64,000 nt of DNA from contig NZ_BLXY01000005.1 of NCBI RefSeq assembly GCF_014193585.1, forward strand, positions 1 to 64,000, written 5' to 3'. Source of the stretch: Geomonas paludis. GTDB taxonomy: Bacteria; Desulfobacterota; Desulfuromonadia; Geobacterales; Geobacteraceae. Under the pieces are notes generated by a model. That model saw only the letters and a program-made list of their open reading frames with translations, did no database searches and had not been told where the DNA came from. A program made the translations under genes and the position numbers. Shown here piece by piece: positions 1,674-9,583 of the stretch (positions are counted from its first letter, which is position 1; every line of letters begins with the position of its first letter).

Positions 1674-1973
1674 CTATTTCGGCTTGTAGGTGAAGCAGTC
1701 GGGATGCGACTCGTGCATGCCGACGTCGACGGCGGGAGCCGTGCACTCCAGGGACTGGTTGTAGCTGCAGTTCTCCACCTTGCAGGCGCCGATGCCGCCT
1801 TGGACGTCGATGATCCCCCCCCTCTGGCTGCCCTGCATGTAGGTATCGCACTCGGGGCAGAGGTCGCCGGGGCCGCCTACCGTGATGGCGAGCGTGTGGC
1901 AGGAGTTGTGCTTGTTATAGGCGCACTGCGTAACGTTGCAGGAGTTGATCTTGACCATCTGCTTCTCTTCCAT
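1674..1973 (-). CDS. Tandem DUF1540 cysteine-rich protein
   Basis: A 99-residue protein made of two DUF1540 units, each with four cysteines in the order C-x4-C, C, C (CNVTQCAYN ... LCPECDTY and CKVENCSYN ... HPDCFTY). DUF1540 proteins are small and metal-binding in appearance; their function is unknown. The start at 1973 has a strong AAAAGGAGG seven bases upstream; a longer in-frame start at 2042 lacks this. It follows hgcB by 81 bp on the same strand. A link to metal handling is inference from cysteine content and neighbourhood only. Confidence 0.8.
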   Translation of the reverse strand: MEEKQMVKINSCNVTQCAYNKHNSCHTLAITVGGPGDLCPECDTYMQGSQRGGIIDVQGGIGACKVENCSYNQSLECTAPAVDVGMHESHPDCFTYKPK

Positions 1974-2054
1974 GTTTTGCCTCCTTTTAGGCGGCCCCCT
2001 TCGCGCATTAGGAGGTTTTAACAGAACGGCCTTGATAGTCAAGCAGGCAAGGTC

Positions 2055-2348
2055 CTACCCGCAACACCCCCCGCCGCTGAAGCCGGGAAGCTTCTTCTCC
2101 CGGAGCCACTCGTGGATCATGCCGCTGGCGCACCCTACCCCGGCGTCCACCTTGAGGGCCGCTGGCGGGCAGTTGAGCGCGCAGGCGCCGCACTCCATGC
2201 AGGCGTCGCGATCGACGACGACGGCCTTTTTCCCCTCGACGCGAAAGACCTGGTGCGGACAGACCTCGACGCACCTGCCGCAGCCGATGCAGCGCGCAGT
2301 GTCAAGCTCCAGCGTGGCCACCCCTTCCAGATACCTGAATCCTTTCAT
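2055..2348 (-). CDS. hgcB: HgcB, ferredoxin of the mercury methylation system
   Basis: A 97-residue 2[4Fe-4S] ferredoxin. Cluster ligands are C20-x2-C23-x2-C26-x3-C30 and C50-x2-C53-x2-C56-x3-C60. The second motif reads CMECGACALNCP, typical of HgcB, with Cys73 following and a vicinal Cys95-Cys96 pair at the C-terminus (GGGCCG). HgcB is known to supply low-potential electrons to the corrinoid protein HgcA, and its C-terminal cysteines are thought to help pass Hg(II). It starts 10 bp after the hgcA stop, and its ribosome-binding site (GAGGGGG) overlaps the end of hgcA, as expected for translational coupling. Pairing with HgcA makes the call firm. Confidence 0.95.
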   Translation of the reverse strand: MKGFRYLEGVATLELDTARCIGCGRCVEVCPHQVFRVEGKKAVVVDRDACMECGACALNCPPAALKVDAGVGCASGMIHEWLREKKLPGFSGGGCCG

Positions 2349-2358
2349 AGCTTCCCCC

Positions 2359-3519
2359 TCAGACCAACAGACGTCCGGCTACGACGATGAAGAGCGCGGC
2401 GCCCAGGGCAGCCGCCATGACGGGAAGTCCCAGGCGCATCTCCTTCTTCACCCCGGACTTGGACGTGTAGGTGGTGCAGCCGGTGAAGTTGAGGGTGTAG
2501 AAGGAGGAGACGGCGGGCAGCGCCAGGAAACAGCCCAGCGTCGCCGCCACACCCCACCCTGCCCCGCCGGCCAGCGCATAGAGGAGCGCGCAGTAGACCA
2601 CTCCCGCCAAGGCCCCCTTGACCGCGAAGCTCCGCCCGGGGAGCAGCGGCAGCAAAAGCGGGCCGACGGCGATGCCGGTAAAGACGGCGCCCAGAAGGGC
2701 AAGCGCCGCGGCGGCCGCGACGTCGGCACTCCAGAAAAGACGCGCCACGAGGTAGACGAGCGCCGTCACCGGGAGCACGGGCTTCGCGGCCAGCACCAGT
2801 TCCACCGGGACCAGCACCAGGCGGTCGTACCAGTTGAAGCGCAGCTCGCGCATGGCGGGCGTGGCCGCGCCCTGGTCGAGGTAGGCGGGAAGATCGGCCG
2901 CGCGCACGGTGGCGTAGGCGACCTCGAAGCCGCATCTTTGTTTCACCCGGTGCGCCGAGACCCCGGCTGCCCCCAGGATGGGGAGGATCAGGCGCCGGTG
3001 GCTCACCACCTGGGCGAGGCCGGTGTTCTCGATGCGGCGCACCAATTCGCCGGTGCCGAAGGTCCCCTTCCCCGCCGCGCACCAGACGTTGATACCGTAG
3101 GTCTCCAGGACCAGGAGCCACACGTTCCTGCCGCAAAGGGCCCGGCGCACGATGTCGTAGCTCATCTTGTAGTTCGCCGTCACCACGACCGGCGCCTCGC
3201 TGTCGGGTGCGCCGATGGCGTAGAGGCCGGGAGGGACCATGAAGGTCATCCTGTTGATGCCCCAGCGCGCCAGGCAGGCGCCCAGGTGGTCGGCAAGGGT
3301 CAGGGTGCCGCCGATCTGGGGCGCCCGGCCGCTTCCCGCCGCAACCCAGCGCAAAAAGCCGGGAACTTTATCGGTGATTTCTCCGCCGCCGGCGGAGGTG
3401 GGAGGGCCTCAACAGGGAGGCGCATCGGGGTTCGCGCCGGCTTCCGGCGCGCAGGAGGAGGGAGAGGCCTGCTTCACCTCGATCTTCTTGAAGCTGCGCA
3501 TCCTGATCTCTTGGCTCAT
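2359..3519 (-). CDS. hgcA: HgcA, corrinoid methyltransferase for Hg(II), with in-frame TGA (candidate selenoprotein)
   Basis: HgcA transfers a methyl group from its corrinoid cofactor to Hg(II), forming methylmercury. The signature cap-helix motif NVWCAAGK is present (Asn144 to Lys151, Cys147 being the lower cobalt ligand), followed by about five transmembrane helices (residues about 230-386). The reading frame is open from ATG 3519 to the stop at 2359 except for one TGA at 3411-3409 (codon 37), in the context Pro-Pro-Cys-TGA-Gly-Pro-Pro. ATG 3519 has GGGGAGGA upstream and overlaps the arsR stop (ATGA), so it is the natural start. The only alternative is TTG 3354, which has no ribosome-binding site and loses the N-terminal Cys-rich tail. 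A stem-loop lies 11 nt after the TGA. I infer selenocysteine at residue 37 of 386; protein evidence is absent. Confidence 0.9.
3381..3411 (-). promoter_or_regulatory. Putative bacterial SECIS element in hgcA
   Basis: The TGA occupies 3411-3409. Eleven bases later a perfect 7-bp stem CTCCGCC/GGCGGAG closes a GGC loop, so the apical loop begins about 18 nt after the TGA. Bacterial SECIS elements are known to have a small loop with a G in its first two positions at about 16-37 nt from the UGA. This one fits, though GC-rich hairpins are common in this genome. Confidence 0.6.
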
Positions 3520-3919
3520 GGTTCATCCTCCCCGGGGCCGTGCCCCGCGATATCCGTTTTTTTGGATTTACCGTGGTCGGGACAGCAGGCGGGATCGCGG
3601 CGGTCCCGCAGCCGCCCCAGGTCCTCCCGCGCGGTCTCGGTGGTCAGCAGGAAGTTGCGCAAGACCGGGACCAGGAACTGCTGCACCGGTTCCAGCGCGG
3701 TCGCCACCGAGTAGTGGTTCCACGCCCCCACCCGGCGCCCCTGCAGCCAGCCTGCGTTCTTCAGGATGGCGAGCTGCCGGGAGACCGTGGATTGGGGCAG
3801 CCTCAGGACGGTCACCAGGTCGCAGACGCAGAGCTCGCCGGCTTCAAGCAGCAAAGCCAAAAGGCGCAACCGGGTATGGTCATCCAGGGATTGGAACAGG
3901 ATAGCGAGTTTTTCCATGC
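3516..3919 (-). CDS. ArsR-family metalloregulator upstream of hgcAB
   Basis: A winged-helix repressor of the ArsR/SmtB family, 134 residues from ATG 3919. The N-terminal half has the classic MEKLAILFQSLDDHTRLRLL opening, then ELCVCDLV, the paired cysteines of the metal-binding type, and the recognition helix LPQSTVSRQLAILKNAG. The C-terminal tail carries a further Cys-Cys (DPACCPDHG). The stop codon overlaps the hgcA start, so the two are translationally coupled. ArsR-like regulators next to hgcAB are known in other methylators; here it probably senses arsenic or another thiophilic metal and represses its own operon. The start is uncertain: ATG 3931 and TTG 3953 are also in frame and none has a clear ribosome-binding site. 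Confidence 0.85.
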
Positions 3920-3928
3920 ACGGCAGCA

Positions 3929-3948
3929 TATCCAATTTTTCGGATATT
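3929..3948. promoter_or_regulatory. Palindrome at the arsR start, possible operator
   Basis: ATATCC-N8-GGATAT forms a two-fold symmetric site immediately before the likely arsR start. Position and symmetry suit an autoregulatory ArsR operator. This is inference; it does not match the best-known ArsR operator word. Confidence 0.35.
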
Positions 3949-4027
3949 AGCAAGAATCCTTTCCAGAAGGAACTGCCTATAAATGTACAAGCCGATATGT
4001 AACGAAGGGGGGAAACTAAAACAAAGG

Positions 4028-5839: not shown

Positions 5840-8800
5840 TTAGTTGCTGCCGTTCACGGTGATGTTCTTGTAGAAGTACCCCACCTGGGCGGACCCGTTG
5901 TACACATACACCTGAATCAGCTTGGTGCCCGCAGCCAGGTAGGTGTGGGTCTTGCTGATGGTGGTAGCGCCGGAGGTCAGGTAGATGTTGTACTTTGCAT
6001 CGCCCCACATCACCTTCACCTGGGTGTTGGCCGGAAGGCCGGTCAGGGTGAGGGTCCCGCCGAGGTTGCCGGTGGCGTCGTTCCAGGAGATGACGCTAGG
6101 CTGCGGAACCACGGCTTCGAAGGACTTGGTGGTGGAGGTGGACTTCCCTTCCTCGTCCTTCACGACCAGGGTTACGCTCTTGCTGCCAGCGCCGGTGAAG
6201 GTGACGGTCGCCTTCTTCGGATCGGTTGCATCCTGGGCGACGGTGCCGCCTACTGCGCTCCAGGTGTAGGTGGAGAAGCCTTTGCCGCCCTGCGCGTCTG
6301 CTGCATTGAGGGCGAGGCTGTCGGTGGTGAAGACCTGGGTGCCCGGTGCGACCGGGTCGACGTCAGCAATGACGGTGGTGATGCTGGCGGTCGGGTCGAT
6401 GCCGATGCCGGAATCGGTTGCATTGATGCTGGTCAGGTAAGCCTTGAAGTTATCCCGGCTGCCGTGATCCACACCTTTCACGTCGATGAAGTTGACGCCC
6501 GACGCGCTCGGGTACAGTGCCTCGGCACGATCAAGCTCGGTGACGCGCTTGTGGGTGGTGGCGGCGCCAGCGGTGAAGGTGCCATTTTCCCATGCGCCGA
6601 GTTCTTCGAACTTAACCTCTACAGCGCCGCCAGCCTTGGTGGCTACCTCTGCGGCGGTCTCGATATCCTCAGAGTTACCAACAATTTCCATCATTTCGGC
6701 GGGAGACTGCATGAAGTTGCCGCCTGCGGTTGCCCTGATTGCAGTGCCAACCATATTGATGCTGCCGTCGAAAATCGGTGCCTTGGCACTGGCAGCCGGA
6801 GCATGGCAGTCGGCACAGCCGAAGCCGGCCTCGGTTTTCTTGCCCAGGACGAACTTGGCGGTCGGGCGGATGCCGTGGGTCAGCTTGTAGGGGCCGGCAA
6901 CCAACCCAAGCTGGGTGCCGCTCCAGGACTTGCCGTCAACGCTGTCCTTGATGGAGTTGCGCCAATCTTTGTAGGCAGTGATTTCTTCCGGGGTGGAGAA
7001 CATTGCGTTGCCGCCGTAAACGCCGACATACTTGAATGCGCCGGTGAAGGTGCCGTTCGGTGCGTAGGCGCTCTGGAAGCTCCCAGAGCCGAAGCCGACC
7101 GGGATCGGGGCAAAGCCGGAGGGGCCATAGTTCATGCCAGCCTTCATGTCGCGGGACAGCCACGGGTCGTAGTTGGTGCTCGGGGTGACCTCAATCGAGC
7201 CATGGACACTCGGTTGACGTCCCGGGACGCCGTCGCCGTTGGCGTCGACGGAGCCGTCGACGTTGTTCCAGATAGCAGCGGTGATCAGGTTGACCGCGTA
7301 GATCTTACGGCGCCAGTTCGGGTTGACACCGGCCGAGGTGGTCTTGAAGTCGTTGCCGTATTTCTGCCAGGTGTACAGCGGGAACCATTTCTCGAGGTTG
7401 TTGCCGACCGGAGCTCCCTGGCCCATCGGGTCAGAGAACATCCCCATCATGCCGCGCTCCTTTTTGAAGCCAAGCATGTTGGGATAGCGATTCCCGGAGG
7501 TGCAGTCGAGAAGACGCACTACCATCTGCTCGCGTGCCAGGTGGCAGACGGTGCAGTCCATCACGTCGAGGTGGTTACCGGTCACGTCCTGCTCAGCACC
7601 GTTGGCGGGGTTGAGGCCGACAGCCTTGGTTACGTTGGCCAGCAGGCCTGCGTTCTGGTGGGCAATGGTCGGGTTCGGCGCCCCGAAGGTTTCGATGCTG
7701 AGACCGTCGCGGTTCTTGCCGGTGACGTGGCAACCGTCACAGGTCTTGACGGTGTTCTGGCTGTTAACGGTGGCAACTTTCGCCGGGTTGGCCTCTACGC
7801 CGCCGGCGCTGTCATAACCACGACCCGGGTCGCAGGCGCTCTTGCCGTCAAAGTTAACCTTACCCTGCGCGTCGACGGTATCCACCTTGGTGGTGTTGGT
7901 ATTCATGTGGCAACCGGAGCAGTTGAGGGTGATGTGTACGTCATACCCTTCGGCCCAGAGATCGCCACGCTTGAACCACTCTGCACGCGGGAACGGAACG
8001 GTACTCTTCTTAAGCACGTTCTGGTCCTGATGCATTCCGTCGGCAAGGGTGGCCTGGTAGTAGATCGGGCCGGAACCCGCGGGGTTGGCGCCACCCAGGA
8101 AGCCCGGGGTCGCCATGGCAGTGGCCTTGTTGAATTCGGTCATGCCCATGGCAGCCGGCCAGCCTGCCGGAATCATCGGGTTGGAGGGCTGATTGATGCC
8201 AATGCCCGCCTGGGTCATGTACAGGGTCGGAGATGCAGCATAAGGGCCTTTCCAGTCCCAGGTGAAGGCAGTCTGCCCGTCCATGGTCATCGGCGCGTTG
8301 AAGTCGAAGGCCGGCATAGCCAATCCGGTGAAGGACTGGGTGAACTGGCCGGTGTAGATCATCGGAGCGGAAGAGAGGAAGTCCCTCATCATGTCCGGCA
8401 GATCCTTAAGGTTCGACGGGGTGTGGCAGTTGCGGCAGTTCTGGCTGGGGGGATCGTACTTCAGCTTGGAAAGGCCCAGGCTGGAGAGGGACACCACACC
8501 GGTGTCCTTGTCCTTCTGGATCAGGCCGGTAGCGAAGTCGTAGGCCTGGGTGAACATGTTCATGAAACCGGCGCCGAAGGACGGGGTCGCATTATGCGCA
8601 CCGCTGTAGGTCATCACCGAGGACATCAGGTTGCTGTAGCCCTCGAAGTGACACATGAGGCAGTCCATCTCCTTGACGTTAGGCATCATTACCTGCCCAG
8701 CGACCACAGGCATCTTGGAGCCGTCCGGCATAGTCATTTCCATCGGCTGGCCCCACCCGCCCGGAGCGGTCACAGGGGTGGTGCCGTTCCAGATGGGGTA

Positions 8801-9583
8801 GGACCAGGGAGCCGGCTCCACGGTGTGGGCGGGCAGGCCGGTCATGGCGTCATAGCGCTCAAAGATGGTCATGGTGTAGGGCGTGATGCCATCGACGAAG
8901 GGGCTCATCATGCTGAAGCGCTTGCCGGTACGGTCTTTCTCAACGAAGCCGCCACCCGGATGGCAGGAGCCGCAGGTCTGGGACAGGTCCCAGGCAGAGT
9001 AGTCGACCTTGGTGAGCAGCGGGTTTTCTCCCGGGACGGTGCTGAAGCTGGGGGTACCCATGAGCATCGTGGCGAGGCTGCTGACCGTTTCAGAGGTCGG
9101 CTTGCCATCAGCACCAAAAGCAAACGGGCCATAGCTGACGTATTTACCGCTGGAGTCCTTCATGTAGTTCGCCACCTGGCGAAGAGAGGGGCTTCACCAC
9201 TTGCCGACCATTGCGGTCGCTTGGGTCCAGGGCTTGTTCTTGGTCGGGTCAAACTTGCCGTTCGCGGTATCGGGGAATTCGTTGCGCCCCTGGGCCGAGT
9301 GGAAAGAGTGGTCCGAAATGTGGTCGTAGCTGAGGTCTATGCCGTTTTTGCTGGTGTGGCACCCGGAGGTACCGCAGGTCTGCTTCGGGCTGTACGGCAT
9401 ACCCTTGCCGGTGGCATCAACCTGAACCGGCACTTTCTGCCCATTGTTCATCTGATAGCCGATTTCCTCAAACGTGTAGAGGGTGACCGGTGGGTGCGCG
9501 GCGAATGATACGCCCGCCACGAGGACCAAGCTGGCAGCCGCACTGGCTGCAGCCAAGCCGCCCTTGACTTTCTGTTTTTTCAT
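5840..9583 (-). CDS. Large octaheme c-type cytochrome with in-frame TGA (candidate selenoprotein), paralog A
   Basis: One open frame of 1247 codons broken only by a TGA at 9196-9194 (codon 130). Residues 1-28 are a Sec signal peptide (ends VSFAA). Heme sites are one CX4CH (CGTSGCH, before the TGA) and seven CXXCH: CGSCH, CLMCH, CRNCH, CSGCH, CDGCH, CTVCH and CADCH. After the last heme come about 200 residues of two Ig/PKD-like beta domains (from VIADVDPV to the end). The context of the TGA is Gly-Lys-Trp-TGA-Ser-Pro-Ser-Leu-Arg-Gln. Paralog B (12324-15764) has a TGA in the same motif, so a sequencing error or decay is unlikely. The downstream piece has no ribosome-binding site of its own (nearest start GTG 9175). 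Selenocysteine insertion is inferred. It is probably an outer-surface or periplasmic electron carrier. Confidence 0.85.
9168..9196 (-). promoter_or_regulatory. Putative SECIS element in cytochrome paralog A
   Basis: TGA at 9196-9194, a 10-nt spacer, then TTCGCC/GGCGAA closing an AGGT loop (9177-9174). The GG-containing loop 17 nt after the TGA closely resembles known bacterial SECIS loops such as that of E. coli fdhF (AGGUCU). Confidence 0.7.

What the first reader, a model, noticed from the sequence alone, without database searches (positions are those of the whole stretch)
2359..3519. HgcA appears to be a selenoprotein: in-frame TGA in a Cys-Sec-Gly motif
Seen: the natural start (ATG 3519, good ribosome-binding site, ATGA overlap with arsR) leads through 36 codons into a single TGA and then, in the same frame, into a full HgcA. 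The TGA sits in Pro-Pro-Cys-TGA-Gly-Pro-Pro. Known: HgcA proteins have a Cys-rich N-terminal tail, as I recall often with Cys-Cys-Gly, so Sec would replace a Cys. A hairpin with SECIS geometry follows. Inference: a selenolate next to a thiolate would be a very strong Hg(II) ligand, which would tie selenium to mercury methylation. Standard annotation would start the gene at TTG 3354 and lose this tail.
Basis: partly seen in the sequence, partly recalled or inferred. Interest (0 to 1): 0.95.

Follow-up and report, generated by a model that had tools for sequence, protein, structure and literature searches.

The report
Selenium-containing tail on mercury-methylating protein HgcA
A Geomonas-like bacterium's mercury-methylating protein HgcA very probably carries the rare amino acid selenocysteine in a floppy tail that a mechanical gene call would cut off; this was already predicted in print for the HgcA family, and no bench test of it turned up in the papers searched.

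Summary
On the minus strand, ATG 3519 (GGGGAGGA ribosome-binding site, ATGA overlap with arsR) leads through 36 codons to one in-frame TGA (3411-3409) in Pro-Pro-Cys-TGA-Gly-Pro-Pro, then a full HgcA (437 bits, cut-off 275) and HgcB. The selenoprotein reading is strongly supported: selA, selB, selC and selD are present, and selD itself has a TGA at GUAAK. Of 236 distinct sequences read (window included), 163 have the TGA, 162 after Cys; the others are mostly Cys-rich. A hairpin fitting the bacterial SECIS model follows the TGA in 116 of 130 loci tested, but in 1 of 13 CCGP-type Cys loci. It is not new: a 2026 review lists HgcA (NF040863, motif 'CU') and HgcB as predicted selenoproteins, citing Zhang & Gladyshev 2008 and Haft & Gwadz 2023. 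Not found stated in what I could read: Sec tails have almost no Cys-Cys pairs (mean 0.09) where non-Sec tails have 2.7; the form seems to have switched repeatedly; and the C93 numbering of the studied ND132 enzyme implies, in relatives with this layout, a start after the Sec. Hg(II) binding by the Cys-Sec pair is plausible but unshown.

The parts
2359..3519 (-). hgcA, full frame with TGA codon 37 read as selenocysteine (386 aa plus stop)
   Evidence: NF040863 437.2 bits against cut-off 275
3409..3411 (-). in-frame TGA, codon 37: selenocysteine codon
   Evidence: TGA at the homologous place in 163 of 236 distinct sequences
3412..3414 (-). Cys36 codon, partner of Sec37
   Evidence: Cys precedes Sec in 162 of 163 sequences
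3381..3397 (-). bacterial SECIS-type hairpin: 7-bp stem, GGC loop, loop 18 nt after the TGA
3526..3533 (-). ribosome-binding site GGGGAGGA of hgcA
3412..3519 (-). codons 1-36: the N-terminal tail before the Sec; residues 1-41 of the model are disordered (pLDDT < 50)
3079..3081 (-). Cys147 in NVWCAAGK, the conserved cap-helix motif of HgcA (C93 in ND132 numbering)
   Evidence: invariant in the 33-sequence alignment; C93 from PMC11588087; that C93 is this Cys is recalled
3352..3354 (-). TTG that mechanical gene calling uses as start, losing the tail; rejected
2055..2348 (-). hgcB, ferredoxin partner (GVGC; C-terminal CCG); Cys form, not Sec
3516..3953 (-). arsR/smtB-type regulator directly upstream, stop overlapping the hgcA ATG

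Best explanation
hgcA here encodes a selenoprotein. The ribosome starts at ATG 3519; at UGA 37, SelB with Sec-tRNA(Sec), bound to the hairpin just downstream, inserts selenocysteine, and translation goes on into the normal HgcA. This gives a flexible N-terminal tail with a vicinal Cys36-Sec37 pair ahead of the corrinoid-binding domain. Shown by sequence: frame, motif conservation, Cys/Sec exchange, hairpin, machinery. Inferred: that the Cys-Sec pair (or the several Cys-Cys pairs of Cys-type homologs) captures Hg(II), or another soft metal or metalloid, and hands it to the methyl-corrinoid centre, in concert with the C-terminal Cys pair of HgcB.
For: TGA in 163 of 236 distinct sequences, most from two lineages (the window's class and the order of a Desulfovibrio MAG); Cys before it in 162 of 163, GP after it in 151, PP in 10; 5 of 5 Cys loci have TGC at the same codon. 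SECIS-model hairpin at -7.5 kcal/mol or better in 116 of 130 TGA loci against 1 of 13 CCGP/CCGGP loci (Fisher p 1e-9; with identical stretches removed 107 of 119 against 1 of 13); at most 5 of 100 synonymous-codon shuffles do as well in 79 of 130 TGA loci and 0 of 13 Cys loci. Stem pairs hold through changes on both sides (pair 15-29: U-A 65, C-G 11, A-U 2; pair 14-30: C-G 62, U-A 11; 90 distinct 36-mers). Own genome: selB 394.6 bits, tRNA-Sec, selA 603.8 bits, selD 364.8 bits with its own TGA in GUAAK. selB over its cut-off in 38 of 41 TGA-type genomes against 4 of 9 others (p 0.003). Tail disordered in the model.
Against: No selenium was detected; all is sequence. The folding energy of the window hairpin is ordinary for its composition, and 14 of 130 TGA loci do not pass the SECIS model. 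Codons 1-36 show little third-position excess of differences against three Geomonas relatives (3/2/9, 10/3/6, 8/2/7 at positions 1/2/3) and many amino-acid changes (6, 11 and 10 of 36 codons), so the part before the motif is only weakly constrained. selB has no hit over its cut-off in 6 of 81 TGA-type genomes of the class, two of them listed as 99% complete (G612, G623), and there selB does not separate the forms (75 of 81 against 42 of 49, p 0.24) because 236 of 277 genomes have it. The Hg(II)-ligand role has no direct evidence here; HgcA made in E. coli gave methylmercury although, if the C93 numbering means what I infer, it lacked this tail.
Confidence: 0.9

Rival explanations
1. Sec37 is real, but its job is not Hg(II) capture: the tail serves redox chemistry or another native substrate, for example an arsenical (the operon has an ArsR-type regulator).
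For: arsR overlaps hgcA; PMC10349881 (passages) reports ArsR control of hgcAB and its response to arsenic in ND132. Vicinal Cys-Sec pairs are also redox motifs (general knowledge).
Against: 55 of 65 non-Sec tails counted carry 2-5 Cys-Cys pairs, often in a Pro-rich stretch, which looks more like metal binding than a redox active site; the family is named for mercury methylation.
Confidence: 0.35
2. The TGA is a true stop: codons 1-36 are a leader peptide and HgcA starts downstream (TTG 3354 or thereabouts).
For: A downstream open frame with TTG exists; the curated HgcA model matches only from residue 67; codons 1-36 are weakly constrained.
Against: No ribosome-binding site before TTG 3354; the motif around the TGA is conserved, and Cys orthologs read straight through it; the SECIS-type hairpin goes with TGA.
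Confidence: 0.03
3. Sequencing error or pseudogene.
For: A single in-frame stop; nothing else.
Against: The same TGA in 162 other distinct sequences and an intact remainder of the frame.
Confidence: 0.005

Closest known systems
HgcA selenoprotein form as listed in PMC13188914 (NF040863, motif CU, WP_250697417.1), citing Zhang & Gladyshev 2008 and Haft & Gwadz 2023
   Same: Same family model, same Cys-Sec dipeptide, one Sec; predicted from sequence.
   Different: Nothing essential. The window gene is a further member; I could not read Haft & Gwadz (not held) to compare residues, taxa or proposed role.
Cys-type HgcA with CCPP-repeat or CCGP tails (for example L016, L025, L169)
   Same: Same core and tail position; Cys at the Sec codon in the CCGP ones.
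   Different: Usually several Cys-Cys pairs instead of one Cys-Sec; SECIS-model hairpin in 1 of the 13 CCGP/CCGGP ones.
HgcB selenoprotein form (NF040864, motif GVGU; PMC13188914)
   Same: Partner protein, also predicted to use Sec in some organisms.
   Different: HgcB of the window has GVGC; of 68 HgcB read beside these hgcA, 67 show Cys there, none Sec, and one was not located by the pattern.
Selenoproteins SaoC and MbdU with CU motifs (listed in PMC13188914)
   Same: Vicinal Cys-Sec; the review names SaoC among those whose Sec may be a metal ligand.
   Different: Other families; compared only through the review's table and text.

Membership tests
HgcA (NF040863) | score over the curated cut-off | tested here: met
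   437.2 bits against 275
HgcA (NF040863) | cap-helix motif N-V/I-W-C-A-A/G-G-K (recalled) and C-terminal helical membrane part | tested here: met
   NVWCAAGK at 144-151, its Cys and N-V-W invariant in 33 aligned sequences; five long helices from residue 230 on in the model
HgcA (NF040863) | hgcB directly downstream | tested here: met
   NF040864 129.5 bits against 99, window 2055-2348
HgcA (NF040863) | methylates Hg(II) | not testable with these tools
   needs an assay
bacterial selenoprotein | in-frame UGA with the coding frame kept on both sides | tested here: met
   the part before the motif is weakly constrained
bacterial selenoprotein | Cys-containing homologs at the UGA position | tested here: met
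   TGC in 5 of 5 Cys-type loci; further Cys tails
bacterial selenoprotein | bSECIS: loop 3-9 nt, stem 4-16 bp, G in first two loop positions, 16-37 nt from UGA, energy at most -7.5 kcal/mol (model quoted in PMC13188914) | tested here: met
   7 bp, loop GGC, 18 nt, -11.5 kcal/mol for the stem
bacterial selenoprotein | selA, selB, selC and selD in the genome | tested here: met
bacterial selenoprotein | selenium in the protein | not testable with these tools
   needs 75Se labelling or mass spectrometry

The most novel reading that the evidence does not exclude
The N-terminal tail is a mercury-capturing arm in which one Cys-Sec pair does the work of several Cys-Cys pairs: lineages have swapped repeatedly between a multi-dithiol tail and a single selenothiol tail. 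Published biochemistry on an HgcA numbered from a start after the Sec codon (C93 numbering) would then describe a core enzyme without its native metal-capture arm.
Probability: 0.35. Interest if true: 0.75.

Novelty: already known. Interest (0 to 1): 0.45.

Why it matters
Microbial methylation is a main source of methylmercury in food webs (general knowledge), and how Hg(II) reaches the HgcA corrinoid is open. If HgcA of many Geobacter- and Desulfovibrio-type bacteria carries a Cys-Sec pair, then start sites and mutant designs that begin after the UGA miss a conserved part, and selenium supply could limit or tune the enzyme. That link is testable in native strains by selenium labelling and selB deletion.

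Tried and rejected
Tested and rejected: TTG 3354 start (no ribosome-binding site); pseudogene or sequencing error (homologs); a wider change of genetic code (the gene itself ends on TGA, and near homologs have Cys, not Trp, there). Sec in HgcB: 67 of 68 HgcB read have Cys at GVGx, none Sec; the TGA after a C-terminal CCS in many of them looks like an ordinary stop, judged by eye. selB as a discriminator within the class: weak (p 0.24). Third-position excess in codons 1-36 as proof of coding: not found. One of three folds (L056) used wrong coordinates and is not used. Single-sequence folding gave no support. One search shows only that residues 1-41 are disordered; no fold search was run.

Rows dropped before counts: one search covered 180 loci (window, L009-L082, L094-L198), dropped 37 without a recognisable site (mostly Cys-rich tails without CCGP, plus tail-less and cut ones), and its 130 TGA loci include duplicates. 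One search read 278 of 280 loci (no cap-helix motif in L147, L168) and removed 42 that are identical over the last 125 residues up to the cap Cys; its non-Sec set of 73 includes 4 tail-less Bacteroidota and sequences cut by contig ends; the Cys-pair count used 161 of 163 Sec and 65 of 73 non-Sec rows (tail stretch of at least 45 residues). From, 75 of 76 over-cut-off hits were read, 130 of 156. In one search, 50 of the 74 loci were used. The selB tallies for the class were matched by hand.

Full report
What is there. On the minus strand of the window, hgcA runs from ATG 3519 to the stop at 2361-2359, with one in-frame TGA at codon 37 (3411-3409) in DAPPC-U-GPPTSAGGGEI. The start has GGGGAGGA upstream and overlaps the stop of an ArsR-type regulator gene as ATGA; TTG 3354, where mechanical calling starts, has no such site in the 25 bases before it. 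The protein scores 437.2 bits against the curated HgcA model (cut-off 275); the match begins at residue 67, so the model does not cover the tail. hgcB follows at 2348-2055. The nearest named relatives are Geomonas species (90% identity to G. anaerohicana).

Is the TGA read as selenocysteine? (1) Conservation. Of 74 loci from a scan of genome contigs plus the window, 65 have TGA at this codon, 5 have TGC, 4 (Bacteroidota) lack the tail and 1 is cut by a contig end. That scan favours close relatives, so two wider surveys were made. In the window's class, 156 of 277 genomes have HgcA over the cut-off; of the 130 that I read, 81 have TGA and 49 do not. In the order of a Desulfovibrio MAG, 76 of 348 genomes have it; of 75 read, 2 showed no cap-helix motif, and of the other 73, 53 have C-TGA-GP, 5 CCGP and 15 other tails. 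Pooled, with rows identical over their last 125 residues removed, 163 of 236 sequences carry the TGA; Cys precedes it in 162; GP follows in 151, PP in 10, DP and AP in one each.

(2) SECIS. The bacterial model quoted in PMC13188914 asks for a 3-9 nt loop, 4-16 bp, G in the first two loop positions, 16-37 nt after the UGA and at most -7.5 kcal/mol. The window has 7 bp, loop GGC, 18 nt and -11.5 kcal/mol for the stem. 116 of 130 TGA loci pass, against 1 of 13 loci with CCGP or CCGGP. Against 100 synonymous-codon shuffles with each gene's own codon usage, at most 5 do as well in 79 of 130 TGA loci and in 0 of 13 Cys loci (window: 1). In 90 distinct 36-mers with the window's spacing, six of the seven pairs form in 84-90 of 90 and the innermost in 75; the outer pairs change on both sides (U-A to C-G or A-U; C-G to U-A). 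A branch with a different peptide (TPAVSG instead of TSAGGG, L056 and kin) keeps a stem at the same place. In the other order the hairpins differ in sequence, and 51 of 55 pass. Against: the window's folding energy is not unusual for its composition, and 14 of 130 TGA loci do not pass.

(3) Machinery. The own genome has selB (394.6 bits, cut-off 242.25), tRNA-Sec (74.9 bits; ARAGORN calls tRNA-SeC, anticodon TCA), selA (603.8 bits) and selD (364.8 bits). selD carries one TGA inside its match, in AAGUAAKLG, a positive control for Sec decoding in this genome. Among 50 genomes behind the loci (of 74; the tool takes at most 50), selB is over its cut-off in 38 of 41 TGA-type, 4 of 5 Cys-type and 0 of 4 tail-less ones. 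Across the class selB is nearly universal (236 of 277), so there it does not separate the forms (75 of 81 against 42 of 49, p 0.24); 6 TGA-type genomes lack a hit over the cut-off, of which G612 and G623 are listed as 99% complete.

(4) Coding signal before the TGA. Against three Geomonas relatives, codons 1-36 differ at positions 1/2/3 by 3/2/9, 10/3/6 and 8/2/7, with amino-acid changes in 6, 11 and 10 of 36 codons; codons 38 on and the core are better kept. The stretch before the PPCU motif is therefore weakly constrained, which gives little support of its own.

What the tail looks like. AlphaFold puts residues 1-41 below pLDDT 50; the core from about residue 50 on is mostly confident. Cys-type tails are often Pro-rich with repeated Cys pairs (for example CCPPPEPETSCCPP, L169). 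Over the stretch 150 to 88 residues before the cap-helix Cys, Sec-type tails hold a mean of 0.09 Cys-Cys pairs (149 of 161 have none), non-Sec tails 2.66 (4 of 65 have none; mean Cys 6.4 against 2.4). So one Cys-Sec appears to stand in for several Cys-Cys pairs. On a quick tree of 114 core columns, Sec and non-Sec need at least 21 changes (62.8 for shuffled labels), but well-supported branches force only 3: the form has probably switched several times, and the exact number is not resolved.

A consequence for known work, inferred. PMC11588087 (found passages) describes the P. mercurii ND132 enzyme with C93 as an important Cys and a 37 kDa HgcA. Taking C93 as the cap-helix Cys (recalled), the annotated protein starts 92 residues before it. 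Among loci L096-L116, 18 of 21 have the Sec, always 114 residues before the cap Cys, and residue -92 is Val in these 18 (GTG in 12). If ND132 has the same layout, the studied protein begins 22 codons after the UGA. ND132 itself was not found among held genomes.

How it most likely works. Shown: a conserved Cys-Sec (or multi-Cys) tail, disordered in the model, on a corrinoid protein with a ferredoxin partner. Inferred: the tail binds Hg(II), or another soft metal or metalloid, and delivers it to the corrinoid, working with the Cys pair of HgcB; PMC11588087 reports that C73, C94 and C95 of HgcB appear crucial for activity. The arsR neighbour and the reported ArsR control of hgcAB in ND132 (PMC10349881) leave an arsenic-related role open.

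What is already known. PMC13188914, table in section 7: 'Mercury methylation corrinoid protein HgcA ... NF040863, CU, 1' with references 61 and 63, and HgcB (NF040864, GVGU) with reference 63. Reference 61 is Zhang & Gladyshev 2008 (four search terms gave no occurrence in its main text); reference 63 is Haft & Gwadz 2023, J Bacteriol 205:e0025922, not held here. [quoted passage not shown] So the central claim of the finding is already in print as a prediction. The searches listed no title or abstract reporting an experimental test or the Cys-pair trade-off, but the library lacks the key paper and I did not open most listed papers, so I claim no priority.

Noticed in passing
L092 (own genome, G000:C16:38667-39584): selD is itself a selenoprotein gene: one TGA in AAGUAAKLG.
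   Followed up: yes
L212, L216, L217, L225, L244, L248, L270, L278, L282 (class survey): A second Sec layout in HgcA tails, CUPP(K/S)APPGA or near it, 131-140 residues before the cap-helix Cys instead of 110; it resembles one CCPP repeat of Cys-type tails with the second Cys replaced.
   Followed up: partly
L294, L128, L149: Odd Sec contexts: PPCUAPE (L294), Gly-Sec-Gly-Pro without the vicinal Cys (L128), Cys-Sec-Asp-Pro (L149).
   Followed up: no
G140:C3:558862-559833: An HgcA hit of 387.6 bits reported with one TGA inside the match; not examined whether this is a second Sec, a stop or an error.
   Followed up: no
G612 and G623 (L237, L243): TGA-type hgcA in genomes listed as 99% complete without a selB hit over the cut-off.
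   Followed up: no
L049 (Nitrospirae MAG GWC2_56_14): TGA-type hgcA on a contig binned to Nitrospirae, in a genome without a selB hit over the cut-off: transfer or misbinning.
   Followed up: no
window 1674-2042 (-): Gene with two DUF1540 stretches just downstream of hgcB, and a small ferredoxin at 1342-1536.
   Followed up: partly
window 5840-9175 (-): Protein of 1111 aa with several CxxCH motifs and weak MtrC/MtrF-like and PKD matches: probable multihaem cytochrome.
   Followed up: no
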